This document shows positions 44,037 to 61,330 of a stretch of DNA of 64,000 nt, in pieces. The stretch comes from an uncultured Prevotella sp. (lineage in GTDB: Bacteria > Bacteroidota > Bacteroidia > Bacteroidales > Bacteroidaceae). Position 1 is the first letter of the stretch; every line of letters starts with the position of its first letter. The notes under the pieces were generated by a model. That model was given only the letters and a program-made list of their open reading frames with translations. It was not told the origin of the DNA and did no database searches. The position numbers and the translations under genes were made by a program. The stretch spans positions 1 through 64,000 of the forward strand of contig ONGP01000007.1 in the NCBI GenBank assembly GCA_900317405.1, in the 5' to 3' direction.

Positions 44037-44792
44037 CTACATCGAGTAGAAGGCTGCCATGAAGCTTTGGCGATAATTCTTGCTTATTTTTAGTTCTCGT
44101 ACGTCATCCAGTGGCTCTTCCAGTATACAAACCGACTCTTGTATCATCTTAATCTTATTGATGTTTACAATATATCGCTTGTGTATCTGCACGAAGTCGG
44201 GCGAGTAGTTCAGTATGACGCTCGTGGTAGTGCGGTGTCGTAAGGTGTATACCGTATTGTTACAGCATACTATCTCCCAGATTTTCCGTTCCTGGTTAAA
44301 TCTGAAGAAAGCTATATCCGAGAGGTTCAGTGCCACGTGCTCGTTCATGGCATTTACTACCAGGATTATCGGCAAGCGTTCTTCTGTTCTTGTAAGATTA
44401 GGAATCGAAGCAAGCTTGTTTTCGTAGTATCGTGCCATGAGCAGACTCAGATCTTGCTCCGTTGGTGGCTTAAGCAGATAGTCGAAAGCCTGACGCCTGA
44501 TAGCCTCAAGCATATACTGGTTGTGGCCCGTATAGAACACTATCTTTGTCTCTGGCTTGATGTCGTTGCGGATTAATGTACAGAATTCAAGTCCCGACAT
44601 CGTGGGCAGTTCTATATCCAGAAATATGATATCCGGTTCTGTATTGATGATGGCGTCTGCTGCTGTCTCTGCATCGCCTGCTGTGCCGACCACAGTTACA
44701 GAGTAGCTGCTTTCCAGCATATTCTTTAGCACTTTTACTGCTTCTGTATTGTCGTCTACAATAAATACTTTTACTAGTTGCTGCTTATTCAT
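44037..44792 (-). CDS. LytTR-family response regulator
   Basis: The 251-residue protein has a receiver domain (residues 8-125; phospho-acceptor Asp59 in IIFLDIELP, Lys in LLKPP) and a C-terminal LytTR DNA-binding domain (about 145-248, with SPDFVQIHKRYIVNINKI). It lies 14 nt after the histidine kinase gene, so the two form one system. Its likely targets are the divergent secreted-protein genes at 47-53 kb; this is inferred from position. Confidence 0.95.
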   Translation of the reverse strand: MNKQQLVKVFIVDDNTEAVKVLKNMLESSYSVTVVGTAGDAETAADAIINTEPDIIFLDIELPTMSGLEFCTLIRNDIKPETKIVFYTGHNQYMLEAIRRQAFDYLLKPPTEQDLSLLMARYYENKLASIPNLTRTEERLPIILVVNAMNEHVALNLSDIAFFRFNQERKIWEIVCCNNTVYTLRHRTTTSVILNYSPDFVQIHKRYIVNINKIKMIQESVCILEEPLDDVRELKISKNYRQSFMAAFYSM

Positions 44793-44806
44793 AATGGCTT
44801 ATGGAT

Positions 44807-46837
44807 TTAATAATCCTGACTATTTAATTGATAATTATAAATGTCTGGCAGCAGGATCCATGAGCGGCATCCGCTCTCTCCGTCCTGTTTCCAGTTACCT
44901 ATGCCGAATGTTATTTTATTCTTGTTGCTTTCGTTAAGCATCTGTATGGTTTGTCGTACCACACGCGATCCTGTCTGACTGCCTGTAGTATCCATTCTGC
45001 TGTGTAGTCCGTTGCCGTTGTCCATCACTTCTACCAGTGTGGCTTGTTGCTCTCTCGATACTCTGATGGTAAGTTTGCGCAGTCGGCCTTCTTCTGGTTT
45101 TATAGGCCTTAGTCCGTGTTTCAGCGCATTCTCTGCGAAGATCTGTACTATCATCGATGGCAGATAGACGTTGTTAGCATCTACATCCTCGGCTATCTCT
45201 TTGTGGTATTCAAAGTCGGGCCCCATCTGTCGGCCTTCTATGTCGATGTAATAGTCTACGAAATTCAGTTCCTCTGCCAGTGTGGTCTGGAATATTCCTG
45301 CCTGCTCTACGCCTCGTCTCAGCAGCTGGGTTAGCGAGTTCAGGTCTACCTTGCGTCCCTCCATCTGTGCCAGCACCTCGTGGTTCAGAGCGTTGTAGAT
45401 AAAGTGTGGAGTTATGCGATTGCGAATGTTCTCCATGCGCATCACCACTATCTGCTGTCGTGTCTGCAGTTCATTGAATTTATGGCGGCGGCGGAAGAAC
45501 AGTATCAGCACCAGCAGTATGGCTACGGTAAAGAGCGCTATTGCAAGCAGGCCCCATGCCAGTAGCTTGTCGGCGCGCGTCTTCTCTATTATTCTGTCTT
45601 GCTCTATCAGTTTCTTGTCGTGCTCATATTCCATCAGCTTCGTGCTGAACTGCATGCTGATTTGTGCTCTCTGCAGCGAGTCGCTCAGCAGATGCAGGTG
45701 GTGACTTGCCTCGTAAGCCTCGCGATAGTTGCCCGTTTCGCGCATCACCTGCTTTGTGGCAATCAGTCGTTGAGCCCTGGCTGCAGGTATCTGTGGATCA
45801 GCCAGTTTGCTGTTTCTTATCACTTGCAGGGCTTGTTGCGGGTGGCCCTCCAGCATTTCCAACTTTATGGTCGACGTCTCTATATAATATAAAAGAGGTT
45901 GGAAATCCACTTTGCGGAAGAATGAGTCGGCCTGATGTAGCAAAATCCTTGCAGAGTCAGCCTTGCCCAAGCATACGTATATCTCGCCCAGATTGGTGAG
46001 CGATGTGTGATAATCCCACGCCTTCGACTCATCGCCTTTTACCAGCGATGCTGCCTGGGCGAAGCAGTCACGAGCCTTGTCGTATTTCTTCTGGAAGTAG
46101 TAGTCGTTTCCCCTGTCGTTGTAGTATATAAACTGGTCTGCTTTTATCATGTTTGGCAACTGTTCCTGGCAGCGATTCCACCAGTAGTTGCTTCGTTCGT
46201 AGTCGCCCATATAGGTGTAAACCGTGCTAATTCCAAGTAGTAGTGGTGTCTTGTCTTCCTCGCTCTTGCCTATAGAGTCGGCAAATTCTAGTGCTTTAGC
46301 ATAGCCTTCTACGCTCTTGTCGTATTTGCCGGTTTGCTGATAGTAGAAAGCCTGATTGGTCATTGCTGTCAGGCGGAACTCATTCTCGTCCTTCTGTGTT
46401 TCCAGCAGTCGTATAGCTTTCTCATTGTATATCAGTGCCGAGTCAGGGCGCCCCAGTATAGCGCTCAGAAATACCGCTTTAGTCTTATACCACTCAGCCC
46501 AGAGTAGTGTGCGTATTGCGTTCTTCTTATTGTCGTGTGCACTCAGATACTGGTATATCCTATCGCTTACGGCAGTCATCGAGTCTACATTCATCTGTGC
46601 GTACCAGAGCCTGTTTTGCACCGACAGCCATCTGTAGTACATGTCGCTATCCTTTGCCTCGCTCATGTGCTGGGCTATCAGCTGTTTAGCGGCCTCCATA
46701 TTGCCGTTCTTTATCGAGTCTTCTACGCGCTTAACCTCAGTATTCATCTTGTTTGGGGTAGGGGTCTTACACGCCTCTATCCCAAACACTATTATCAATA
46801 GTGCTACAAGCCAGATTGTAACTTTTTTAGTCTTCAT
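44807..46837 (-). CDS. TPR-containing LytS-type sensor histidine kinase
   Basis: The layout is an N-terminal signal (a cysteine follows FGIEA and may be lipidated), a TPR-rich periplasmic domain (about 45-390), a coiled coil, one membrane helix (LLAWGLLAIALFTVAILLVLI in part, 426-448), then a His_kinase domain with RITPHFIYNALNHE (His about 478) and a HATPase end with DNGNGL. Such kinases sense envelope cues through the TPRs. Another ATG lies two codons upstream (46843). The -7 box TAAATTTG is at 46854-46861, only 10-16 nt away. Confidence 0.93.
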   Translation of the reverse strand: MKTKKVTIWLVALLIIVFGIEACKTPTPNKMNTEVKRVEDSIKNGNMEAAKQLIAQHMSEAKDSDMYYRWLSVQNRLWYAQMNVDSMTAVSDRIYQYLSAHDNKKNAIRTLLWAEWYKTKAVFLSAILGRPDSALIYNEKAIRLLETQKDENEFRLTAMTNQAFYYQQTGKYDKSVEGYAKALEFADSIGKSEEDKTPLLLGISTVYTYMGDYERSNYWWNRCQEQLPNMIKADQFIYYNDRGNDYYFQKKYDKARDCFAQAASLVKGDESKAWDYHTSLTNLGEIYVCLGKADSARILLHQADSFFRKVDFQPLLYYIETSTIKLEMLEGHPQQALQVIRNSKLADPQIPAARAQRLIATKQVMRETGNYREAYEASHHLHLLSDSLQRAQISMQFSTKLMEYEHDKKLIEQDRIIEKTRADKLLAWGLLAIALFTVAILLVLILFFRRRHKFNELQTRQQIVVMRMENIRNRITPHFIYNALNHEVLAQMEGRKVDLNSLTQLLRRGVEQAGIFQTTLAEELNFVDYYIDIEGRQMGPDFEYHKEIAEDVDANNVYLPSMIVQIFAENALKHGLRPIKPEEGRLRKLTIRVSREQQATLVEVMDNGNGLHSRMDTTGSQTGSRVVRQTIQMLNESNKNKITFGIGNWKQDGESGCRSWILLPDIYNYQLNSQDY

Positions 46838-47073
46838 ATGCATATTGTTGCTGCAAATTTACGAAAATTTATCTGTAATTCTTGCATTATTCTAAAAAAA
46901 GATTTTTGTGTAAACGCAACAACTAAAAATGTTTTTCCTCTTAGGTTAATTATTTGTCGCTTTGTCTGCGTTATTGTTGTGTTGCGCTAATTTGCTTGTT
47001 TCGCGTGCTTGGATTGTAGGCATATAATTCATATATTTGCAATAATTATTATTAACTTAAAACATTTTTGATT

Positions 47074-47958
47074 ATGAAAAGACTTGCTTTATTTATCATG
47101 GTATCGATGTTCTTTGGCTTTGGAACGTCTTTTGCTCAGTCTGATCCAAATTGGGAGGGCGAGATAACTACAAATCTTACATCTATGCAGGATATGAAAA
47201 CAGCTGTAAAAACTAAGAATATCCTGGCCAAGATGATTCTGAAAAATGTGATGAAGAAGATAGAAAACAACGGTTATTACACAGGTACTTATACTACTAC
47301 GACTATTGCTAAAGGTAAGAATAGGTATAAAGTCTTTACGCCATATAACAACAGCTATATGATAGTAGAAAAAAATGGTGATATGATGAAATCAACTACC
47401 TATTTCCCTGGAATTAAGAAGGGCTATTATACCACAACAAGCATTTCGGCCAACAAGCAACAAATGGAGGAATTGCGTAAGGGAAAGATAGAAAAGACAG
47501 GTGAGACGATGACGCTATGCGGTCGTAAATGTGAGGTTTATAGAGTGAAGTATGAGGTAAAGACTAATGCCGATGGAACTAACTCTACCACTATAATGAA
47601 TAATGACTATGCTATCTATCTGGATCCTATAGAAGACGAGGTGTTGCCCGACATTAAAGGCGTACCTATGAAGTTCATCAACAATACGGTTTCTCAGTCT
47701 ACAAACGATATGTTAGACATGGATTACAAGATGTATCTGGCAAGCGAAATCGTTTCGATAAAGGATAGAGCTGTAGACGAATCAGAAGTAACTGTACCTA
47801 GCGAAATCAAACTGATTGATGCAGATAAGAATCAGAAGGGAATGCTGAAGATCATCGAGGAAAATATGAAGTATCTTAAGAAGAACAATATGTGGAACGA
47901 GAAGTCTCCTGACGAGATTAAGATATACGATAATCTGCAAGAGGATTGGGAGTACTAA
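47074..47958 (+). CDS. Secreted protein with a repeated uncharacterised domain
   Basis: After a signal peptide (MKRLALFIMVSMFFGFGTSFAQ) the 294-residue protein has a domain with GETMTLCGRKCEVYRVKYEV and the end DEIKIYDNLQEDWEY. The same domain is the C-half of the protein at 48543-50108. The CGRKCEVYR-type motif recalls GLPGLI or DUF4412-like beta-rich periplasmic families, but I cannot assign it. First gene of a run divergent from the two-component system. ATG 47074 is preferred to an in-frame TTG at 47068. Confidence 0.75.
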   Translation: MKRLALFIMVSMFFGFGTSFAQSDPNWEGEITTNLTSMQDMKTAVKTKNILAKMILKNVMKKIENNGYYTGTYTTTTIAKGKNRYKVFTPYNNSYMIVEKNGDMMKSTTYFPGIKKGYYTTTSISANKQQMEELRKGKIEKTGETMTLCGRKCEVYRVKYEVKTNADGTNSTTIMNNDYAIYLDPIEDEVLPDIKGVPMKFINNTVSQSTNDMLDMDYKMYLASEIVSIKDRAVDESEVTVPSEIKLIDADKNQKGMLKIIEENMKYLKKNNMWNEKSPDEIKIYDNLQEDWEY

Positions 47959-47972
47959 AAAGCAAAACAGTT

Positions 47973-48530
47973 ATGAAAAAAATATTAGTTATTTCCCTTA
48001 TGTTGGCTCTGTGTGGCCTGAGTGCTATGGCGCAGAAGGGTAGAGATGGTATTGGTGGCAATATCGCTTGGAATCTGTATAATGATAGTGGTTTTGGCTT
48101 GGGTGTAAAGTATCAGTATAATTTATCAGACAATGTCCGACTGGAACCGTCGTTCAACTTCTATCCGACTAATACTATGCCTGATAGATGGGGACATAAA
48201 GAAGGCTGCTACACGTGGTTGCTTAATGCCAATCTGCATTATCTTATCGGCAAGCCCAATCGTTGGCGTACCTACATTATTGGCGGTTTGGCTTTGGGCA
48301 ATATGAAGGGACACGATGAGAAATCCTATGGTTATTATGATGAATATGGATATTATGATGGGTATTCGGAAAGTGTTGATGTAAACAAAACCAAAATCGG
48401 CATCAACGCTGGCCTGGGATTTGATTATCGTATAACATATGCATTGTCTCTCCAGATGGAACCTAAGATCATTCTTCAGAATACTATTACTCTAGCTCCA
48501 ACAATCGGTTTGACATATTACTTTAAATAA
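47973..48530 (+). CDS. Small outer-membrane beta-barrel protein
   Basis: The 185-residue protein has a signal peptide (ending AMAQ) and a set of alternating amphipathic strands ending in an aromatic residue pattern, TIGLTYYFK, typical of an eight-stranded OmpA/PorT-like barrel. A Tyr/Asp/Gly-rich loop, SYGYYDEYGYYDGYSES, is likely external. It lies 14 nt after the previous stop in the same run. Confidence 0.82.
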   Translation: MKKILVISLMLALCGLSAMAQKGRDGIGGNIAWNLYNDSGFGLGVKYQYNLSDNVRLEPSFNFYPTNTMPDRWGHKEGCYTWLLNANLHYLIGKPNRWRTYIIGGLALGNMKGHDEKSYGYYDEYGYYDGYSESVDVNKTKIGINAGLGFDYRITYALSLQMEPKIILQNTITLAPTIGLTYYFK

Positions 48531-48542
48531 CCTGTAGTATTG

Positions 48543-50108
48543 ATGAGGATGAAAAGGATAATTCTGTTTATGTTTGCCATCTTGGTATTCCATATCGATA
48601 CCATGGCGCAGACGATGACGATCGAGGGTAATACATTCACGCTTCGTCTTTATGATAATGATATGACGGCAGAGATCTATGATTCAAAATTCGTTATCGA
48701 CGACCGTCCATTCCCGATGAATCAGAAGGAACGTAAGTTTAATGATATCAAGGCCAAGAAAAGTCAGTTTCTTCTTAGTAAATCAGAGTCAGAACCCGTT
48801 GTTGTAACTATTCCTTCCACATATACGGCTTCGAATGGTAATGTTTATGATATCACAGTGATAGGTAAGGCCGCTTTTGCAGGCTTTAAGAATGTAGATA
48901 GCTACATCATTCCTGCATCAGTTGTCACTATCGACGATTACGCTTTCTTCCGTTCTTCTATATCTAGTATCGAGATTCCCGCCTCAGTACAGACCATAGG
49001 CAAACGAGCATTTGGCTATTGCGAAAAACTTAAAGACTTTAAAATACCTCAAGGACTGAATTGTGATAATGACGTGTATAGGGAGAGCAAGAAGGCTGAA
49101 GTAGATTACTATCTTGCAGATAACTTCACGCCACTACCCCGACAAGGAAAGAAAAATATTGTGACACCCAAAAGGGCGATTGCTCAAAAGGCAGTTGAAC
49201 AAGCTGCTAATGCCAATACTACATCGGCAGACTCAGCGCTGGCAGTTGCTGATGAAGAGGAGGCTGTACCTTTCGAGTATGTGCCATTTGAAGGAGAATC
49301 AACCTCAAATATCACATCTGTTGTTAAGATGAAAACTCACATCAAGACTAAAAATCTCTTGGTGAAATTAATTGCCAATAAAATAATGAAGAAGGTGGAT
49401 GGAAGACTCTCTAAAAATGGTACATATCTGGCAACAACAATTCAGAAAGGTGCAAAATCTAAAACAATTAGCAATTTTGATAATAGTATCACAATCACAG
49501 AGCAGACTGGAAATTATCTGAAGACCACGGTCTACTATCCGTACATAAAGAAAGGCTATTTTACAACAAATAATATTTCCGATAGCCAGAAACAGCTGGA
49601 AGAAATGCGTAAGGGTACAGTCGAGAAGATTGGAGAGACAATGATGATTCTAGGCAAAAAATGCGAATTATATCGAGTGAAGTACGAGATGAAAAAAGAT
49701 TCGGCAGGAACTGTTACGATAATGAATCTTCATAATGATTTCGCAGTATGTAAGGATCCCTCAATACCAGGTGCCAACATAGAGTATATCCCTGGTGTAA
49801 GGGGCGTGCCTCTCAAATATATCAACAACACGACATCGCAGACAACAAGCAAGGAACTTGATATGGATTATTTGATGTACTTGGCATGTACCACAACGGA
49901 AATAAAAAGTAGACCTGTGAATGATTCAGAACTTGAAGTTCCTGAAGACATCGACTTTTTTGATGCAGATAACCCCAAGAATGCTAGGAAAATGCTGAAA
50001 ATGATAGATGAAAACAAAAAGTACATGATTAAGAATAAATTATGGAAAGAAGAGGATCCTGATAAGATCAAGATATATGATAACCTGCAGGAGGACTGGG
50101 AGTATTAA
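48543..50108 (+). CDS. Secreted leucine-rich-repeat protein fused to an uncharacterised domain
   Basis: After a signal peptide the N-half (about 30-180) has BspA-type LRR_5 repeats (AFAGFKNVDSYIIPASVVTI, SVQTIGKRAFGYCEKLKDF). A linker follows, then from about residue 255 to the end a domain paralogous to the 47074-47958 protein, with GETMMILGKKCELYRVKYEM and the same end, KIKIYDNLQEDWEY. The LRR part may bind a ligand or surface. Start could be ATG 48543 or 48549. Confidence 0.82.
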   Translation: MRMKRIILFMFAILVFHIDTMAQTMTIEGNTFTLRLYDNDMTAEIYDSKFVIDDRPFPMNQKERKFNDIKAKKSQFLLSKSESEPVVVTIPSTYTASNGNVYDITVIGKAAFAGFKNVDSYIIPASVVTIDDYAFFRSSISSIEIPASVQTIGKRAFGYCEKLKDFKIPQGLNCDNDVYRESKKAEVDYYLADNFTPLPRQGKKNIVTPKRAIAQKAVEQAANANTTSADSALAVADEEEAVPFEYVPFEGESTSNITSVVKMKTHIKTKNLLVKLIANKIMKKVDGRLSKNGTYLATTIQKGAKSKTISNFDNSITITEQTGNYLKTTVYYPYIKKGYFTTNNISDSQKQLEEMRKGTVEKIGETMMILGKKCELYRVKYEMKKDSAGTVTIMNLHNDFAVCKDPSIPGANIEYIPGVRGVPLKYINNTTSQTTSKELDMDYLMYLACTTTEIKSRPVNDSELEVPEDIDFFDADNPKNARKMLKMIDENKKYMIKNKLWKEEDPDKIKIYDNLQEDWEY

Positions 50109-50126
50109 AACACAAATCTATAATAT

Positions 50127-51383
50127 ATGAGGCTATTATTAGTTTTAGCTACACTTTGGGTTTCTACCGTCTGTCAGGCGCAGACGGTAGACCCTTTATT
50201 TGTTTATCGACGTGGTTCTATCTACTCCATCATGATAAGCCATCGTGGACAGTTGTATGAGAATGATATCGAGGCTGCCTTCAACAAGATGCCTATCCCA
50301 GAAAAGTATAACGACCACGGGGTAGGTAAAAAGATATTCTATACTTCTGAGAAGAAAATTAACATCAAAGACCTTGAAAAACATGAAGGATTCAAGGTGA
50401 ATGCTGCATCAGACCAATCTCAGATGAACGAATATGATTTCTTTCTCCAGCGACAAAACATAGCCTCCCGACTAGTGGCTAAATGGTTTCATCGAAGCAA
50501 GTCTACTGGTGTGTGCGACATGGAGTTGGTAAAGGAGAGAGGCTATACCAATGCATCAGAAACAGATAAACGTCTGGCCGCTTTGTCAGCGCGCAAGGAG
50601 GCTATCCTGCAGGATGCTGGCGAGGAACTGATAGGCAGTACGTTTGTGCTGGTAAATGATATACGATACATTGACAAGAGCAAGGGCTCATCGGTTATTG
50701 GCGGAGCTATAAGCGCTGCCATTAAAACTAATGACGTACTACATGGCAAGAATACATTGGAAGAAAAAGACCTGGGCGATGTTGTTGCCAGCTATAAGGG
50801 TTTTAATGTAAAAATCAAGACATATCTCTATCAGCTAGTATGGGACGAGCAGGTGTCATCATCATTCTATAACGATATATACACAGAGCAGCCCGACGAC
50901 TCTAAAATAGAGAACTTTGAGAATAAGCGAGGCGATTTCTCACTAGTTTATCTAGGTATGCAAGAGAGTAGCGGCAAAGATATATCGTTTATGGGAATAA
51001 ATGAGAATGAACCACAAGTGATGGTACTTAAGGCGTGTCAGAGAGCTCTTGACGAGAATGTGGCAAATCTGCAGAAGAACTTCGAAGTGTTTAAGATTAA
51101 GGCACCACTTACAGGCGTTGAGCCATTGAAATGCGAAATCGGCCTGAAAGAGGGCGTAACGGAGAAGAGTCGTTACGAGGTACTAGAAGCCGTTATGAAC
51201 GATCAGGGCCATATAGAATACAAGCGTCAAGGCATTATCCGTCCTGTAAAGGGTAAGATATGGGACAATCGTTTTATGGCTATTGAAGAAAGAGCTGACA
51301 ATGCATCGCTTGGTTTCACCACATTCGAGAAAGTGAGCGGTGGCGATTTTTACCAAGGCATGCTAATACGCGAACTGAAGTGA
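50127..51383 (+). CDS. Secreted hypothetical protein, 418 aa
   Basis: A signal peptide (cleavage after VCQAQ) precedes a 400-residue protein with no motif I recognise. It has mixed helices and strands and no further membrane segment. It is the last gene before the caspase promoter and lies 18 nt after the LRR fusion, so it is in the same run. It may be a partner of the surrounding envelope proteins. Confidence 0.7.
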   Translation: MRLLLVLATLWVSTVCQAQTVDPLFVYRRGSIYSIMISHRGQLYENDIEAAFNKMPIPEKYNDHGVGKKIFYTSEKKINIKDLEKHEGFKVNAASDQSQMNEYDFFLQRQNIASRLVAKWFHRSKSTGVCDMELVKERGYTNASETDKRLAALSARKEAILQDAGEELIGSTFVLVNDIRYIDKSKGSSVIGGAISAAIKTNDVLHGKNTLEEKDLGDVVASYKGFNVKIKTYLYQLVWDEQVSSSFYNDIYTEQPDDSKIENFENKRGDFSLVYLGMQESSGKDISFMGINENEPQVMVLKACQRALDENVANLQKNFEVFKIKAPLTGVEPLKCEIGLKEGVTEKSRYEVLEAVMNDQGHIEYKRQGIIRPVKGKIWDNRFMAIEERADNASLGFTTFEKVSGGDFYQGMLIRELK

Positions 51384-51419
51384 TTATTATGATTTTGATA
51401 AAAAAAACTAAAAAACATT

Positions 51420-51450
51420 TGGAACTTTTAAAAATAATCCCTATATTTGC
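51420..51450 (+). promoter_or_regulatory. Promoter of the caspase-fold gene, shared motif
   Basis: TTTGG (-33) and TATATTTG (51442-51449) 20 nt apart, with a conserved spacer. About 27 of 31 positions match the promoter at 59411-59441. The 47.01-47.04 kb promoter has the same spacing and TATATTTGC but a different spacer. Confidence 0.75.
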
Positions 51451-51494
51451 AAACGAGATATTATCAATAACTGAAAATTATTAGACTTTTGACT

Positions 51495-52871
51495 ATGAGG
51501 AGGCTATTATCGACTGTTATATTGCTTATTCTGGCGCTTAATCTGTTTGCTTTTGATTATACATATAAAGGCGTGGATTTTAAGTGCAAGGTCACAGGTG
51601 ATGGCGTATGTATTACAAGTTTCTCTGTTAAAGCGACTAATGTAGTAATTCCATCTGTGGTCGTAAACAAGGGAGTGGAGTATAGAGTTAAGTCTGTTAG
51701 TACATTTCTTAATGGAGTAAATTATCTGGCTGAAACCCTAGTTCTAGAGGAAGGTATTGAGGATATTGACAAGTTTTCGTTTAACGAGTTTCGTAAACTC
51801 GTAAGTGTTACGCTTCCATCTTCTTTGCGTCATGTTGGCCGAAATGCATTCCGTAACAATTCTGGTATGAAATTTCATCTAGCCTCAAACATCAGCGAGG
51901 CGATGCTACGAAGTGGAAAAGATTTTAATCCTACTCCAGTAGTGAATGGCGCAACAGATTCTTCTAACTCTCGACTGATGGCACAATCTACTCCAAGACA
52001 GACTACGGTAGTTAGTAAACCTGCATCTCAACCTGCTCCCCAACCGGCTAAACCTGTTGTTGCACAGCCGCAAAAAACTCAAGAGAAGACAGTGGATGTA
52101 GATGTTGATATTCCATTGACTACTGTAAAGAATACAGACACTTATTGCGTGATTATTGCCAATGAGAAGTATGAGGATGTGCCAGAGGTGGCCTATGCTA
52201 CCAGAGATGGAGAGATTTTTAAGGAATATTGCGTCAAGACGCTGGGCGTTCCTGCCAAACAGATAAAGACGTTCATCGACGCGTCATATACAGACATTAA
52301 GCGTGCGATGAACTGGATAGAGACGATTGATAATGTTACAGAGGGAAAATCGAAGATTATTTTCTACTATGCAGGCCATGGTCTGCCCAGCGAAACTGAC
52401 AAAACCGCATATTTGATACCTACAGACGGATTTCCTAAGGATATCACGACCTGTTATAAGTTGAGCGAGCTATATTCTCGTTTAGGTAAACTCAAGTCTC
52501 AAAGCGTCACCGTGTTTCTGGATGCATGTTTCAGCGGTGTTGAGCGTGGTAGTACCCAGGCTCTTATTGCCGCGCGAGGCGTGGCCATTAAACCCAAGAG
52601 AGAGGTGCTCAGTGGCAATATCGTGGTATTCTCTGCTACATCCGATGATGAGACGGCTTTATCGTATCAAGAAAAGAAGCATGGCATGTTTACATACTAT
52701 CTGCTGAACGAATTAAAGGAGAGCAAGGGCAAGGTAAAGTATGGCGACCTGTTCAAATCTGTTTCTTCGCAGGTTAAGAAAAACTCTATACTGGAGAATG
52801 ATAAGCTACAGACGCCATCGGTTAATTGCTCGGCAAATATGAAAGAAAAATGGCAAAACCTACAATTTTAA
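51495..52871 (+). CDS. Secreted caspase-fold (C14-like) peptidase with LRR-like N-terminus
   Basis: The 458-residue protein has a signal peptide, a BspA-like N-terminal module (about 20-130), a Pro/Gln/Ala linker (150-205), and a caspase/metacaspase domain (about 212-450). The catalytic dyad is intact: His295 in YYAGHGLPSE and Cys345 in FLDACFSG. Caspase-like enzymes usually cut after Arg, Lys or Asp and often need processing. The signal peptide places it outside the cytoplasm. ATG 51495 is chosen over TTG 51489. It has its own promoter; a barrel protein follows. Confidence 0.9.
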   Translation: MRRLLSTVILLILALNLFAFDYTYKGVDFKCKVTGDGVCITSFSVKATNVVIPSVVVNKGVEYRVKSVSTFLNGVNYLAETLVLEEGIEDIDKFSFNEFRKLVSVTLPSSLRHVGRNAFRNNSGMKFHLASNISEAMLRSGKDFNPTPVVNGATDSSNSRLMAQSTPRQTTVVSKPASQPAPQPAKPVVAQPQKTQEKTVDVDVDIPLTTVKNTDTYCVIIANEKYEDVPEVAYATRDGEIFKEYCVKTLGVPAKQIKTFIDASYTDIKRAMNWIETIDNVTEGKSKIIFYYAGHGLPSETDKTAYLIPTDGFPKDITTCYKLSELYSRLGKLKSQSVTVFLDACFSGVERGSTQALIAARGVAIKPKREVLSGNIVVFSATSDDETALSYQEKKHGMFTYYLLNELKESKGKVKYGDLFKSVSSQVKKNSILENDKLQTPSVNCSANMKEKWQNLQF

Positions 52872-52898
52872 TTATTAACCCATAAAACAATTACAATT

Positions 52899-53459
52899 AT
52901 GAAAAAACTATTTTCTTTAATTTGTGTAGCGATGTTTGCTGTAACAGCATCTGCTCAGGTTACATGGAACATGAAGGGTGGTTTTGGTGTTGCAACCTGT
53001 TATGGTTCTGATACCGATGGACTTAAGAGTCACCTGGTTGGAAAGATTGGTGCAGGTCTTGAGTATCCGCTTAGCAGTAATGTTTCTCTGATGCCTTCGT
53101 TGGAGTTTGCTTGGAAGGGCACGGAGACGAAAGATGATGGTGATAAATTGACGGTCGACTTGTATTATTTGCAAGTTCCTGTAGTATTTGCTTATCGTAT
53201 AAATTTAGCTGACGCTTGGAATACGACGCTTAAAGCTGGCCCATATTTTGCATATGCTGTTTCTGACAAAGTAAAATATGGATCATATAGCGGGTCTGCT
53301 GACGTTAAAAAATTCGATGCTGGTCTAGATGCTGGTGTAGATTTTGAGTATCATCGCTTTGTTTTTGGAGTTGAGGCTGAGATGGGATTTATGGAACTTT
53401 ATAGCGGCGGCAGTATTAAAAATCTGGCCTTCTATGCAACCTTAGGTTGGAAGTTCTGA
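52899..53459 (+). CDS. PorT-like outer-membrane beta-barrel protein
   Basis: The 186-residue protein has a signal peptide (ending TASAQ) and strand patterns of an eight-stranded barrel with a terminal aromatic strand, FYATLGWKF. It resembles the porin-family / outer_membrane_beta-barrel group. It follows the caspase gene by 27 nt and is probably cotranscribed. It may be an adaptor or simply a structural barrel. Confidence 0.85.
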   Translation: MKKLFSLICVAMFAVTASAQVTWNMKGGFGVATCYGSDTDGLKSHLVGKIGAGLEYPLSSNVSLMPSLEFAWKGTETKDDGDKLTVDLYYLQVPVVFAYRINLADAWNTTLKAGPYFAYAVSDKVKYGSYSGSADVKKFDAGLDAGVDFEYHRFVFGVEAEMGFMELYSGGSIKNLAFYATLGWKF

Positions 53460-53701: not shown

Positions 53702-54211
53702 TTACTTCAGGTGGCTGTTCAGTTCGGCTAGCAAGTTTTCTTGGCTCATCGTGAGGTAGTCGGTCAGTATACCGTCAATATAAGCCCTACGAAGTTTATT
53801 CTTATTTCGCGAAGCCTCTTTGTACACAGGATACACACACTTGCGTAGCTTTGTAATCTGCGCATCCTTAAACTCGGCTATCTCATCCCATCTGATGACG
53901 TTGTAGCCACAATATGGTGAGAATATGTGCAACTCGCTATTGGTGATAACTATGGCTGGCTTATTTAGCAGGCATAGATTGTAATACCTTACACCAAAGA
54001 AATACAACGCATTCAGTCCCAATGGCAGAAAAATAACAGCTGCAACAAACACCAACGAGTACCACAACCAATCGGGCGCTGAAATCGTAGTGTTAAAAGT
54101 TGATGGACTGATGGCTATAGCTGTAATCACAGCGCCAAAAACGGTCGCCAAAATACATGTAACCGCATCCCACGCAGCCATAAAAATATGTCGCTTTTCG
54201 TATATCTCCAT
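53702..54211 (-). CDS. Small membrane protein (STM3941-like)
   Basis: The 169-residue protein has two adjacent membrane helices (about 14-34 and 48-70) followed by a cytoplasmic domain with IVITNSELHIFSPYCGYNVIRWDEIAEF, which fits the STM3941 / PH-like group. Function unknown. Promoter on the minus strand: -7 TACCTTTG at 54264-54271 and -33 TTTG at 54292-54295, 20 nt apart. Confidence 0.75.
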   Translation of the reverse strand: MEIYEKRHIFMAAWDAVTCILATVFGAVITAIAISPSTFNTTISAPDWLWYSLVFVAAVIFLPLGLNALYFFGVRYYNLCLLNKPAIVITNSELHIFSPYCGYNVIRWDEIAEFKDAQITKLRKCVYPVYKEASRNKNKLRRAYIDGILTDYLTMSQENLLAELNSHLK

Positions 54212-56959: not shown

Positions 56960-59272
56960 ATGAAAAGAATTTTTATTGTGAACGGAAAAAAGATGGCTGA
57001 GACCATCAACTCGAAGGAGGAGTACTTTAACTTGCGTAACTCTGCTGAGAATCGCAGCAATCTGGCTATGGCTCGACAGGGCGATGAGAAGGCCAAGCAT
57101 AAGCTGGTACAGATAGCCTACAACGATCTTATGCCTGATGGCAAGGTGGAAGGGGCTTGTCATCCCAGCTCGATGTTTGCCTACGACGTGGACTGTGCAA
57201 GCCTGGACGAGAGCAATCGTATCGCCAAGAAGATGCTTGAGATGAAGGCAGAGATAGGTCTGCTTGAGATGAGTCGCTCAGCACGATACGGTCTGCACTT
57301 GGTGCTTCGTCGAGAGATGGGCAAGACCATCCTTGAGAATCAGGTACGCGTGTCGATGCTCACACAGACCGAGATGGACACCCAAGCTCACGATTTGGGT
57401 CGCGTGATGTTTACCACCACAGCCGATGCTGACGAGCTGCTTTATCTGGACGATGCCATCTTCACAGAGACAATGACCATCGAGCAGAGCGAAGAGGAGT
57501 ACAAGACTCTGAAGGAGCGCGAGAAGAAGAATCAGGAGGATGTACCTGCAGGTGCCAAGAAGGCCAACAAGCATTATCGCCCTTGGGAGGACAACGGCAA
57601 CGTTACATCAGAAACCAAGCCCGTGATGGAAGTTTCTATTAATGATGTACCCGCGAAGCCCGACATGCGCTATCTCAAGGTTTTCGATCTGTTTATGGAA
57701 GAGGCTGGACTCTCAGAGAAGTCGTTGCAGATAGAAGGCGTTCGCCACAACTCACTGCTCAGCATTCTCTCGATAGGTGCCAGCCGATTGATTCCCAAGA
57801 GTCAGATGATTGCAATAGTGCGCCATCGCATGCCTGAGTATGCTAACGAGGACGATTGCAAGAAGCTCATTGACGACTTCTACAAGAAGACTGATCCTAA
57901 TGCCGCCCTCACCAAGCGTCAGCGTGAAATTCTGGCCGAGGCATTCAGTGAGCAGGATGACGATATCGAGGACGAAGAGGTAGAACAGGAGGCTGCAGAC
58001 AAGAAGCGCTACAAGTTGATAGCCAAGCTTCTGCCCACAGGACTGCGCGAGCCCGTGATGGCCGCACCTAAGGAAATGCAGATGAACATACTCTGTTCTA
58101 TCATGCCTATCGCAGCAGCCTATGCCGACCAAGTAGAGGTGAAGTATGCCGACGAAAAGACTCAGTATCTGGGACTGATGTCAATCATCGTAGCACGTCA
58201 GGCAGGTGGTAAGTCTGGCTGTAAGGAGGCCGTAGAGTGTTGGATGAAAATCTTGAAGGATGAGTCAGACTCATATCGCCGACAGGAGGACGAAATCAAG
58301 CAGAAGAACAAGTGTCGCAAGTCTAACGAGCGTGCAGAAGAGATGCCTAAGTTCCCCATCCGCAAGTTGCCTATTACCGTATCTAATTCTACACTGCTTA
58401 AGCGATTCAAGGCTGCACCTGGTCACTGCCTGTTCTCATTCTGTGAAGAGCTCGACACTCTGCTTAAGACCAACTCAGCAGGCAACTGGAGTGCCAAGTA
58501 CGACATCTATCGCTACTCGTTTGATCGTGCTGAGTGGGGCCAGGATTACAACAGCGATCAGGCAGAATCGGGCGATGTGCAGGTAATCTACAACTGGACC
58601 ATCTTTGGCACCTACGGCTCGTTCAACAAATGTTTCCAGCGCGACAATGCTGAGAACGGACTTGGTGGTCGTGTGTTAATATCAGAGTTGCCCGACACCC
58701 GCTTTGCCAAGATGCCCAAGTATCGCCCTCTGACTGACGAAGAGCAGGAAGCTGTGCAGCAGGCAGCTCGCCGTCTGAGTGAAATGAAGGGATTTGTAGA
58801 TACGCCTCGTCTGCGCAAAGCCATCGCCAAGTGGGTTGAAGAGAAGCGAGTGTTCGCCCTGAAAAACAACGATGAAGTAATGGACAACTTCCGCCGTCGT
58901 GCCGCTGTCATCGGCTTTCGTTGTGGAGTAATCTTCCATCTGCTCTCAGGTGATGAACGCGAATCAAAGGCCTGTGTAGACTTCATGCTGATGATGGCCG
59001 ACTACTGTCTGGACACCCAGATGCGACTGCTTGGTAACATGATAGAAAGTCAGCAGGCTCAGAATGCTCCTGCCGAGGTGCGCACCATCAGCGACAAGAC
59101 CACCTACGACAAGTTGCCCAAGGAGTTTACCTACGACGATCTGAAGACAGCCAAGGGCCCTGGCTACAGCGACTCCACCTATCGTAGCGATGTGAAACGT
59201 TGGAGAGACAACGGATTCATCAAAGAACAGGGTGATGGCCGTAACAAAATATTTATAAAGATAGTAGCCTGA
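56960..59272 (+). CDS. Primase/helicase-like replication protein (BT4734/VirE-N plus DUF3987-like)
   Basis: The 770-residue protein has three parts. N-terminal (1-180): a BT4734/VirE_N-type domain with primase-polymerase-like residues FAYDVDC (Asp76, Asp78), SRSARYGLHLVLRR (His113) and DLGR (Asp145). Middle (about 240-700): a helicase-like DUF3987 region with a degenerate Walker A, ARQAGGKSG (412-420). C-terminal (about 725-770): a winged-helix-like end, TYRSDVKRWRDNGFIKEQG. Such proteins are frequent on Bacteroidales mobile islands and are thought to drive their replication. Confidence 0.82.
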   Translation: MKRIFIVNGKKMAETINSKEEYFNLRNSAENRSNLAMARQGDEKAKHKLVQIAYNDLMPDGKVEGACHPSSMFAYDVDCASLDESNRIAKKMLEMKAEIGLLEMSRSARYGLHLVLRREMGKTILENQVRVSMLTQTEMDTQAHDLGRVMFTTTADADELLYLDDAIFTETMTIEQSEEEYKTLKEREKKNQEDVPAGAKKANKHYRPWEDNGNVTSETKPVMEVSINDVPAKPDMRYLKVFDLFMEEAGLSEKSLQIEGVRHNSLLSILSIGASRLIPKSQMIAIVRHRMPEYANEDDCKKLIDDFYKKTDPNAALTKRQREILAEAFSEQDDDIEDEEVEQEAADKKRYKLIAKLLPTGLREPVMAAPKEMQMNILCSIMPIAAAYADQVEVKYADEKTQYLGLMSIIVARQAGGKSGCKEAVECWMKILKDESDSYRRQEDEIKQKNKCRKSNERAEEMPKFPIRKLPITVSNSTLLKRFKAAPGHCLFSFCEELDTLLKTNSAGNWSAKYDIYRYSFDRAEWGQDYNSDQAESGDVQVIYNWTIFGTYGSFNKCFQRDNAENGLGGRVLISELPDTRFAKMPKYRPLTDEEQEAVQQAARRLSEMKGFVDTPRLRKAIAKWVEEKRVFALKNNDEVMDNFRRRAAVIGFRCGVIFHLLSGDERESKACVDFMLMMADYCLDTQMRLLGNMIESQQAQNAPAEVRTISDKTTYDKLPKEFTYDDLKTAKGPGYSDSTYRSDVKRWRDNGFIKEQGDGRNKIFIKIVA

Positions 59273-59441: not shown

Positions 59442-59512
59442 GCTGTCTATTATAAATATAGATACGTTATAATTAAAAATCCAAGATGTAAACAATACAA
59501 AAATAAATGCTT

Positions 59513-61330
59513 ATGAAGAAACTATTACTTATTTCAATGTTGGCAATACTGCCGATAATTGTAAGTGCCTATGATTTTATGGTGAATGGCGTGGCCTATA
59601 AAGTTCTTTCTCTGGACAATTTAGAGGTCGAAGTAACTGATGGCTTCGTTGCTGACAATGACGGCAAATTGGTAATCCCTGCTACAGTAGAGTATAAAAA
59701 CAGAGTGTTTAAGGTATTGGGGATAGGCGATATCAGTATTGGTGCAACGCCGTTGAACTCTATTACCGACTTGACTATAGAGGAAGGTCCAACTTATATC
59801 GGATCTTATGCCTTTTGGTGTCAACGTATAGAAACAATCAGAATTCCCAAATCTATTACCAGCATTAAATCCGCTGCATTTTTAGATAACAAGGGCTACC
59901 ATATGGAAATAACTGGTACGTGGGTGTCTGAACCACCAATCAATCTTATTATTGAGGATGGAGAAGAGATTCTTTCGTATAATGTTGAAAATCCATTTGC
60001 AGATGGACCTTTTAAGAACTGTGAAGCTACCTATGTGTATGTAGGAAGAAATGTTAATGCTGACCTGTTTAAGACCGCTTTACGATCAGTTGAAACACTT
60101 GAGATTGGAGATCAGGTTAAGGAAATAACACCAGAGGCTATTCCAAATAAATACAGCAAACTCTATCGTCTGAAAACCTTAATTATTGGTAAGGGATTGA
60201 AACTTGTGCCATATTGGGAAGAGGGCGACCAGGTCGAAAAAATCTATGTGCGTACTATGACGCCTCAAAATTCATTGGGTTTTGACAGCGGCACGTTTAT
60301 TACCGCAACGCTTTATGTGCCCAGAGGATCAAAGGATGCCTACATGAATGCTGATGTTTGGAAAAACTTCTGGACGATTGAGGAGTATGATCTGGAGAAT
60401 CCTGGCGAAGGCCCTAACACAAATGACGATGATGTCAATGAGTTCTATGTTAATGCATTGGGGTATAGAGTTCTGTCGAAGGAGGATATGACTTGTGAGG
60501 TATTTGATGGTAATTATGGCGGAGAGGTGCATGTACCAGGAGAAGTCACCTATGGCAATAAGACTTACAAAGTACTCGGTATAGGAGAAAAGGCCCTTTG
60601 GGGCAGTAATATCACAGCCCTTTCAATGGATAATTCACTTACGTATATTGGTAATCAGGCATGTGCCATATGTTCAAATCTCAGAAAGGTAACCATTCCA
60701 CCTTCTGTTATTAACCTCGGTGAAGGCGCTTTCAGCGGTTGCTCAGAACTAGAGACATTCATCATTGAGGATGGAGACGAAATGCTAGAACACAAGTTAA
60801 ACAATTATTATATCACCACTATTGATTACGATGCTCTTAAAACAGTTTATATAGGACGCAATTTTAGCAAAGATATTTTTTATGGTAGGTGTTGCAATAA
60901 TATTACAGACCTTACCATTGGAGACAAAGTAACCACTTTCGAACTTGATTATTTCCCATCTCTACTCAAACTAACCATAGGTAAAGGTCTGACATCCCTA
61001 CCATATATGGATACAGGCGATTATTTGAGTCAGATTATAGTAAATGCGACTACACCAATAAGTAGTGGAGGATTCAGCAATCGTACCTATCTGCACACTA
61101 CACTCTATGTTCCTCAAGGCTGTCTTGATGTATATTCCACTACTGAGCCTTGGAGTAACTTCTTGTCTATCCAAGAGTATGATCCTACGTCGTTAAAGTC
61201 GATTACTGCCGAAAAAGACGTCATTGATGCTGTCTACCTATTAAATGGCCGTCAAGTAGCCAGGCTTCAGAAAGGAATAAACATCATTAAGCTTCGAGAC
61301 GGACGAACAAGAAAAATAAACGTCAAGTAA
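59513..61330 (+). CDS. BspA-type leucine-rich repeat surface protein with two modules
   Basis: After a signal peptide the 605-residue protein has two similar modules, each opening with VNGVAYKVLS / VNALGYRVLS and closing with LYVPRGSKDAY..WKNFWTIEEYD / LYVPQGCLDVY..WSNFLSIQEYD. LRR_5 repeats lie between. The last 30 residues (AVYLLNGRQVARLQKGINII...) look like a short C-terminal secretion/sorting tail. Such proteins bind host or bacterial surfaces. The caspase gene at 51495 shares its promoter motif. Confidence 0.88.
   Translation: MKKLLLISMLAILPIIVSAYDFMVNGVAYKVLSLDNLEVEVTDGFVADNDGKLVIPATVEYKNRVFKVLGIGDISIGATPLNSITDLTIEEGPTYIGSYAFWCQRIETIRIPKSITSIKSAAFLDNKGYHMEITGTWVSEPPINLIIEDGEEILSYNVENPFADGPFKNCEATYVYVGRNVNADLFKTALRSVETLEIGDQVKEITPEAIPNKYSKLYRLKTLIIGKGLKLVPYWEEGDQVEKIYVRTMTPQNSLGFDSGTFITATLYVPRGSKDAYMNADVWKNFWTIEEYDLENPGEGPNTNDDDVNEFYVNALGYRVLSKEDMTCEVFDGNYGGEVHVPGEVTYGNKTYKVLGIGEKALWGSNITALSMDNSLTYIGNQACAICSNLRKVTIPPSVINLGEGAFSGCSELETFIIEDGDEMLEHKLNNYYITTIDYDALKTVYIGRNFSKDIFYGRCCNNITDLTIGDKVTTFELDYFPSLLKLTIGKGLTSLPYMDTGDYLSQIIVNATTPISSGGFSNRTYLHTTLYVPQGCLDVYSTTEPWSNFLSIQEYDPTSLKSITAEKDVIDAVYLLNGRQVARLQKGINIIKLRDGRTRKINVK

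What the first reader, a model, noticed from the sequence alone, without database searches (positions are those of the whole stretch)
44037..53459. Possible undescribed envelope system: TPR kinase, LytTR regulator, barrels and a secreted caspase
A two-component system is divergent from six genes that all encode secreted or outer-membrane proteins. These include two copies of one uncharacterised domain, two barrels, an unknown 418-residue protein and a caspase-fold protease with an intact His295/Cys345 dyad and a signal peptide. Caspase-like proteases in defence or death systems are usually cytoplasmic; an exported one beside surface LRR proteins is unusual. It could process surface proteins, act on competitors or host, or respond to envelope damage.
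Basis: partly seen in the sequence, partly recalled or inferred. Interest (0 to 1): 0.7.

Follow-up and report, generated by a model that had tools for sequence, protein, structure and literature searches.

The report
Exported caspase in envelope gene cassette
A bacterium of the Prevotella group carries an exported caspase-like protease beside a sensor pair and the marker gene of an undescribed envelope cassette, and relatives fuse such caspases to other parts of that cassette.

Summary
Its six-gene block was not found elsewhere as a block, but it sits on something conserved.

P4 (the unknown 418-residue protein) marks a cassette found across Bacteroidales: F1, DUF6175, F4, WG repeats, P4. F1, DUF6175 and F4 all lie within eight genes of P4 in 56 of 89 other loci. 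P4-bearing genus genomes hold DUF6175 in 22 of 23 cases. The kinase/regulator pair is near P4 in 8 of 89.

Relatives, one in this same genome, fuse the caspase to F1, F1-DUF6175 or WG repeats. Of 50 window-type caspases in the genus sample, 31 are fused to or near cassette genes or F39, against 1 of 41 other C14 proteins. All 50 have a signal-like N-terminus, so export is the norm.

P1 resembles LolA/RseB; P4 resembles FlgT (fold only, moderate).

Best reading: an envelope module under a FimS-like kinase, with an exported caspase as protease. Proteolysis, target and control of the caspase are inferred; the window caspase has its own promoter-like site and no LytTR half-site upstream.

The parts
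44037..44792 (-). Response regulator, REC + LytTR
   Evidence: Pfam Response_reg 84.8 bits, LytTR 34.7 bits; full-length orthologs of at least 60% identity in 12 of 200 genus genomes, the window's included
44807..46843 (-). FimS-like sensor kinase: TPRs between two hydrophobic segments, then His_kinase
   Evidence: Pfam, hydropathy; FimS equivalog model only 18.5 bits of 600
46961..46972 (+). Candidate operator TTTGTCTGCGTT in the divergent intergenic region (noticed by eye, then scanned)
   Evidence: TTTGTCNNCGTT occurs exactly once in the 64 kb window; exact upstream of the kinase in 2 of 12 relatives, one mismatch in 2 more
47032..47039 (+). TATATTTG promoter-like site before P1
   Evidence: sequence; motif recalled
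47074..47958 (+). P1: exported LolA/RseB-fold protein (DUFa)
47973..48530 (+). P2: outer-membrane beta-barrel
   Evidence: OMP_b-brl 48.6 bits; relatives directly precede LRR-caspases in L038 and L041
48543..50108 (+). P3: LRR_5 + second copy of the P1 domain
   Evidence: LRR_5 59.4 bits; 49% identical to P1
50127..51383 (+). P4: marker protein of the conserved cassette, FlgT-like fold
51442..51449 (+). TATATTTG promoter-like site before the caspase
   Evidence: sequence; motif recalled
51495..52871 (+). P5: exported LRR_5 + caspase (C14), dyad His295/Cys345
   Evidence: Peptidase_C14 78.7 bits, dyad, hydrophobic N-terminus
52899..53459 (+). P6: outer-membrane beta-barrel, directly after the caspase
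   Evidence: OMP_b-brl_2 66.6 bits; two relatives (25% identical) directly precede an LRR-caspase in G213 (L147)

Best explanation
The locus is a local, altered variant of a conserved Bacteroidales envelope module. Shown by sequence: a FimS-like TPR kinase and LytTR regulator lie divergent from exported proteins that include P4, whose family is embedded in an F1-DUF6175-F4-WG cassette across the order; window-type exported caspases are repeatedly fused to or placed near parts of that cassette or F39. Inferred: P4 (FlgT-like) and the barrels form an assembly at the periplasmic face of the outer membrane. The LolA/RseB-like domains of P1 and P3 bind a lipid, lipoprotein or other hydrophobic signal of envelope trouble. 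The kinase's periplasmic TPR domain reads the state of the envelope or assembly, and the regulator turns on P1-P4. The exported caspase is the module's protease, cutting a partner or regulator in the periplasm when the module is engaged; its LRR part places it.
For: Cassette: F1, DUF6175 and F4 all within eight genes of P4 in 56 of 89 distinct loci, WG in 70, DUFa in 24; DUF6175 in 22 of 23 P4 genomes and 35 of 200 overall, Fisher 2.8e-19; P4 in 33 of 198 genomes drawn across the order, and P4, F1, DUF6175 and F4 together in 11 of 20 of their loci. Kinase/regulator: near P4 in 8 of 89 other loci, one in P. vulgatus ATCC 8482 (kinase 29% identical); full-length regulators of at least 60% identity in 6 of 23 P4 genomes, 12 of 200 overall, p 7e-4. 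Caspase link: fusions to F1 (L050_10, L073_14), F1-DUF6175 (L034_6 in this genome, L056_4) and WG (L163_6, L062_3); any C14 within 6 kb of P4 in 5 of 11 genomes that hold both, 0.24 expected, or 4 against 0.22 without the window's locus; 31 of 50 window-type caspases linked, against 1 of 41 others, and 29 of 48 without the window and L038. Folds. One P4 protein is fused to FlgT_C domains, another to a WD40 propeller. Operator-like element.
Against: The six-gene order was not found elsewhere. F1, DUF6175, F4 and WG were not found within five genes of the window's caspase. The caspase has its own promoter-like site and no LytTR-type half-site. Caspase presence does not significantly track P4 presence (11 of 23 against 66 of 200, p 0.09). 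Only 8 of 89 P4 loci have the pair and 6 a caspase, and the caspases of L061 (one of the 5 near-P4 genomes) and L131 are distant from the window's (24-26% identical; L061's falls in the other type). Regulator orthologs also sit beside unrelated operons (L148, L149, L150). Of the 50 caspases, only 12, from 5 genomes, are fused to or near the strict cassette; 21 are near F39, whose own tie to P4 rests on 3 proteins in the P4 loci. The FlgT likeness is fold-level only: no FlgT Pfam hit in 25 P4 proteins, profile comparison weak. No expression or activity data exist.
Confidence: 0.42

Rival explanations
1. Accretion: the kinase pair controls P1-P4, but the caspase-barrel pair (P5-P6) is an independent unit that happens to have landed next door.
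For: Own promoter-like site; full order seen only here; caspase near P4 in only 6 of 89 other loci; the closest P4 relative, L067, has the pair, P1 and P4 and no caspase in its 21 kb.
Against: Fusions of this caspase type to cassette domains in this and other genomes; proximity above chance; in G213 the kinase pair and an LRR-caspase with P6-like barrels share one 19-kb stretch.
Confidence: 0.3
2. Processing protease: the caspase matures or sheds surface or outer-membrane proteins such as the LRR proteins and barrels, with no sensing role.
For: Exported, LRR-fused, beside barrels; dyad motifs in 48 of 50 of the class.
Against: No substrate known; no T9SS sorting domain hit; fusion partners vary widely among caspases.
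Confidence: 0.12
3. Antagonism: a secreted effector with a C-terminal caspase as toxin domain, as proposed for some polymorphic toxins (PMC3482391, passages).
For: C-terminal caspase here, variable other parts in relatives.
Against: In the ten proteins scanned, no immunity protein or RHS/T6/T7/T9 delivery part was recognised, and several relatives are fused to cassette parts.
Confidence: 0.07
4. Defence or self-killing triggered at the envelope, for example by phage attack.
For: PADLOC caspase model 32.4 bits; caspases are proposed in bacterial conflict systems (PMC8195603, passages).
Against: Signal-like N-terminus, no NTPase or adaptor domain hit in P5, EACC1-type caspase model under its cut-off (58.4 of 140), neighbours are envelope proteins.
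Confidence: 0.06

Closest known systems
FimS-FimR (Porphyromonas gingivalis)
   Same: Sensor kinase with TPRs in a periplasmic domain between two membrane segments, working with a regulator on envelope appendage genes (PMC11053733, passages)
   Different: FimS equivalog model 18.5 bits of 600; here the regulator is of LytTR type and the neighbours include P4, not fimbrial genes
FlgT, flagellar basal body component (3w1e; and 8z5n, titled LPHT ring, whose matching chain I take to be FlgT)
   Same: The two top structural matches of P4 in both looks; one P4 relative, L165_6, carries FlgT_C domains at 27.3 bits, cut-off 27
   Different: No FlgT model hits P4 by sequence; TM 0.2 and rmsd over 10 mean the domain arrangement differs or the match is partial
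LolA / LolB / RseB / MucB superfamily
Bacterial metacaspases / orthocaspases (C14)
   Same: Caspase domain with His/Cys dyad; FGE-sulfatase and Sel1 fusions as described (PMC3501461, PMC4933709, passages)
   Different: Exported, with fusions to LRR_5, WG, F1 or DUF6175; paper searches on DUF6175 and on caspase with WG repeat found nothing
EACC1 and other caspase conflict systems
   Same: Caspase as protease in a multi-gene set
   Different: Those are described with STAND and EAD parts (PMC8195603, passages); here exported, with envelope neighbours

Membership tests
Peptidase C14 (caspase) | Profile match over cut-off | tested here: met
   78.7 bits, cut-off 21.4
Peptidase C14 (caspase) | His/Cys dyad | tested here: met
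   His295, Cys345
Peptidase C14 (caspase) | Proteolytic activity | not testable with these tools
   needs an assay
FlgT family | FlgT_N/M/C sequence models | tested here: not met
   no FlgT model at E<=1 in 25 P4 proteins
FlgT family | FlgT fold | tested here: inconclusive
LolA/RseB superfamily | Fold | tested here: met
LolA/RseB superfamily | Lipid or lipoprotein binding | not testable with these tools
   needs an assay
FimS kinases | TPRs between two membrane segments | tested here: met
FimS kinases | NCBIfam FimS equivalog | tested here: not met
   18.5 bits of 600
LytTR regulators | LytTR domain | tested here: met
   34.7 bits, cut-off 22.6
LytTR regulators | Consensus direct repeats upstream of targets (consensus recalled) | tested here: not met
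   one half-site at 47051 and none before 51495
EACC1 caspase systems | EACC1-type caspase model | tested here: not met
   58.4 bits of 140
T9SS cargo | C-terminal sorting domain | tested here: not met
   no such NCBIfam hit in P3 or P5 at E<=0.1
P4 cassette (defined here) | P4 with F1, DUF6175 and F4 near it | tested here: not met
   P4 is present; no F1, DUF6175, F4 or WG within five genes of the caspase; DUF6175 is elsewhere in the genome, fused to a caspase and F1

The most novel reading that the evidence does not exclude
Bacteroidales carry an outer-membrane assembly built on a FlgT-like protein, a relative by fold of the flagellar H ring, outside any flagellum. It contains an RseB-like sensor and an exported caspase: a caspase-driven proteolytic alarm in the periplasm, wired to a TPR kinase.
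Probability: 0.12. Interest if true: 0.85.

Novelty: new variant of a known kind. Interest (0 to 1): 0.58.

Why it matters
Bacterial caspases are studied mainly as cytoplasmic death or defence proteases (general knowledge). In this sample of one genus (close records are titled Prevotella) the window-type caspases all look exported, and many are tied, by fusion or neighbourhood, to envelope proteins of unknown role that span the order Bacteroidales. That gives a concrete, testable setting for what exported caspases do. It also gives a first handle on DUF6175, P4 and the F1/F4 families, and points to a FlgT-like fold outside flagella.

Tried and rejected
LytTR direct repeats upstream of 47074 and 51495: not found. 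P4 as FlgT by sequence: no Pfam hit; profile comparison with the FlgT_C-like repeats of L165 aligned only a short glycine motif (29% probability at best). F1 as an LPP20 or FlgT_N relative: no such Pfam hit in 22 members, so the idea is dropped as a claim. P1 in Foldseek: no match at E<=0.001; the LolA/RseB match comes from the second look only. The C-terminal parts of the P4 fusions L165_6, L166_2 and L168_5 look like barrels to the eye, but Pfam support is sub-threshold or absent, so this is not claimed. PDB search by sequence gave LRR proteins for P5 and nothing useful for P4.

Idea that caspase and P4 always co-occur: rejected (p 0.09). Idea that the whole six-gene order is conserved: not borne out. 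Solitary-defence reading: the PADLOC caspase hit is weak.

Limits. The 80 named P4 loci are the best 80 of 302 confirmed, so counts lean to close relatives. Of the rows I fetched or already held stretches for all with E up to 7.5e-15; 19 weaker rows were not fetched. One locus in the caspase count, L038, came and not. In 10 of the 73 loci L185-L257 no ORF passed my caspase profile, and these are left out. Two fragments (L062_0, L190_0) were dropped before the count. The first profile was trained partly on cassette-linked caspases; a second one without any fused to or beside P4-cassette genes, the window's own P5 apart, gave the same split, with a score gap from 78 to 228 bits. Genome sets, place pairs and copy numbers were read off the outputs by hand. 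A regulator match in G136 (72%, cut by the contig end, no P4 there) was left out of the 12. ORF calling is greedy and starts are rough. The signal test is a heuristic: a stricter form passed 86 of 93 caspases against 289 of 673 other ORFs of 200 aa or more.
Full report
WHAT IS THERE. The coordinates hold. A LytTR regulator and a TPR kinase lie on the minus strand. Six genes that all start with a signal-like stretch lie on the plus strand. P1 and the C-terminal part of P3 are the same domain (49% identical). P3 and P5 both begin with LRR_5 repeats, and P5 ends in a caspase domain with His295 and Cys345. The gaps between P1, P2, P3 and P4 are 12-18 bases (from and the ATG starts). A 111-base gap with its own TATATTTG site separates P4 from P5, and P6 follows P5 after 27 bases. 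I therefore read two units: P1-P4 and P5-P6. Close P4 relatives come from records titled Prevotella or broader names of the same order, many from rumen or gut samples.

THE CONSERVED CORE. P1 has matches in 8 of 200 genus genomes and P4 in 23 of 200, the window's genome counted in both. I fetched 20 P4 loci and 80 named ones (the best 80 of 302). Clustering their proteins shows a cassette: F1 (about 160 aa, often two), DUF6175, F4 (about 311 aa), a WG-repeat protein and P4. Within eight genes of P4 there is F1 in 68, DUF6175 in 66, F4 in 61, WG in 70, DUFa (the P1 domain) in 24, a 190-residue barrel-like family in 24, the kinase and regulator in 8 and a caspase in 6 of 89. Of 23 P4 genomes 22 also have DUF6175, which 35 of 200 have overall. 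Across the order, 33 of 198 genomes have P4 at E<=1e-10; of 20 of these loci, 11 hold P4, F1, DUF6175 and F4 together. The window has no F1, DUF6175, F4 or WG match within five genes of its caspase; its genome has DUF6175 and F1 fused to a caspase on contig 28 and a second DUFa-P4 pair on contig 47.

THE KINASE PAIR. Full-length regulator orthologs of at least 60% identity occur in 12 of 200 genus genomes. In 5 of these (G000, G035, G105, G186, G191) they share a stretch with P4. Elsewhere the same pair faces other operons: a propeller-LysM, unknown and barrel set (L148), a Ser/Thr kinase and FHA set (L149), a C10 peptidase (L150). In G213 the stretch with the pair also holds two P6-like barrels and an LRR-caspase like P5 (34% identical full length). 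The LytTR consensus (recalled) gives one half-site before P1 and none before the caspase. A 12-base element, TTTGTCNNCGTT, which I first noticed by eye, occurs once exactly in the 64 kb, at 46961. It is exact in 2 of 12 relatives' upstream regions, with one mismatch in 2 more (one of them on the other strand and elsewhere); the other 8 have two mismatches or none.

THE CASPASE. Its type is not confined to this locus. In the genus sample 66 of 200 genomes have a C14 match. I examined the stretches around all with E up to 7.5e-15 (19 weaker rows not fetched), plus L038. With profiles built, 93 caspase ORFs were found. After dropping two fragments there are 91: 50 of the window type and 41 others; a second profile without caspases fused to or beside P4-cassette genes, apart from P5, gives the same split with a wide gap in score. 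All 50 of the window type and 38 of 41 others have a signal-like start; the stricter test passes 86 of 93 caspases and 289 of 673 other ORFs. Of the 50, 9 are fused to F1, F1-DUF6175 or WG, 5 lie within five genes of P4-cassette genes, and 21 within five genes of F39 (an exported protein with a weak DUF4384 match). Any of these holds for 31 of 50, against 1 of 41 of the other type (Fisher 4e-10), and for 29 of 48 when the window and L038 are left out. The 12 with a strict cassette link come from 5 genomes, so they are not 12 independent events. Within the 11 genomes that have both P4 and C14, a C14 protein lies within 6 kb of P4 in 5; random placement predicts 0.24. Without the window's own locus it is 4 against 0.22. 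One of these, in G067 (L061), is of the other caspase type. Presence of C14 and of P4 are not significantly associated (p 0.09).

HOW IT MIGHT WORK. Shown: gene content, conservation of the cassette, linkage of kinase pair and P4 in some genomes, fusions of caspases to cassette parts, and an intact dyad. Inferred: that P4 and barrels form an assembly at the outer membrane; that the LolA/RseB-like domains bind a hydrophobic envelope signal; that the TPR kinase reads it, as FimS is thought to read a periplasmic signal (PMC11053733, passages); and that the exported caspase is the protease of the module. RseB is a stress sensor by the title of its PDB entry. By analogy the P1 and P3 domains could gate proteolysis, but nothing here tests that. 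The main rival is that P5-P6 is a separate unit beside a P1-P4 unit.

WHAT IS KNOWN. Metacaspases with an N-terminal helix that may be a signal peptide, FGE-sulfatase fusions, and operons with OmpA or cell-surface genes were noted in 2012 (PMC3501461, passages), and a Sel1 fusion in 2016 (PMC4933709, passages). Caspase-like peptidases in exported toxins are described in PMC3482391 (passages). Searches of the held library found no paper with DUF6175, none with caspase, WG repeat and Bacteroides, and none with WG repeat and Bacteroidales; three papers hold DUF4384 and caspase, on cyanobacterial or photosynthesis-linked orthocaspases (listing only). Most subscription journals are not held, so this is weak evidence of absence.

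VERDICT. The new parts are the P4 cassette and its recurrent tie to exported caspases.

Noticed in passing
L034 8253-10373 (G000:C28): This same genome has a second exported caspase fused to F1 and DUF6175 in one 707-residue protein.
   Followed up: partly
L054 6752-8808 (G000:C47): Second DUFa-P4 pair in this genome, with an F39 (weak DUF4384) gene two genes on.
   Followed up: partly
L190 and L062 (G158:C1): One genome has 12 C14 matches, with several exported WG-caspase fusions in a row on the contig that also holds P4, DUFa and DUF6175.
   Followed up: partly
L165 6073-8661; L166 1923-4655: P4 fused to FlgT_C domains in one genome and to a WD40 propeller in another; C-terminal parts look barrel-like but are unproven.
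   Followed up: partly
L149 5444-7241: A regulator/kinase ortholog pair faces a Ser/Thr kinase and an FHA-domain gene instead of P4.
   Followed up: no
L043, L164: Exported caspase fused to a formylglycine-type (FGE-sulfatase) domain in L043; both loci have F39 four genes downstream of a caspase.
   Followed up: no
L163_7, L190_2: Two exported caspase-like proteins with altered dyad motifs lying among intact ones; possible pseudo-enzymes.
   Followed up: no
L194, L197, L199, L200 and others: Caspases of about 234-255 residues with signal-like N-termini, of the other type and mostly not tied to the cassette, are common in the genus sample.
   Followed up: no
window 56960-59272 and 59507-61330: A protein with a sub-threshold DUF3987 match and a 607-residue protein with a weak LRR match follow the locus; possibly a mobile stretch.
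   Followed up: no
window 53702-54211: Small membrane protein with two hydrophobic segments resembling the STM3941 family (34.9 bits, cut-off 40), next to the locus.
   Followed up: no
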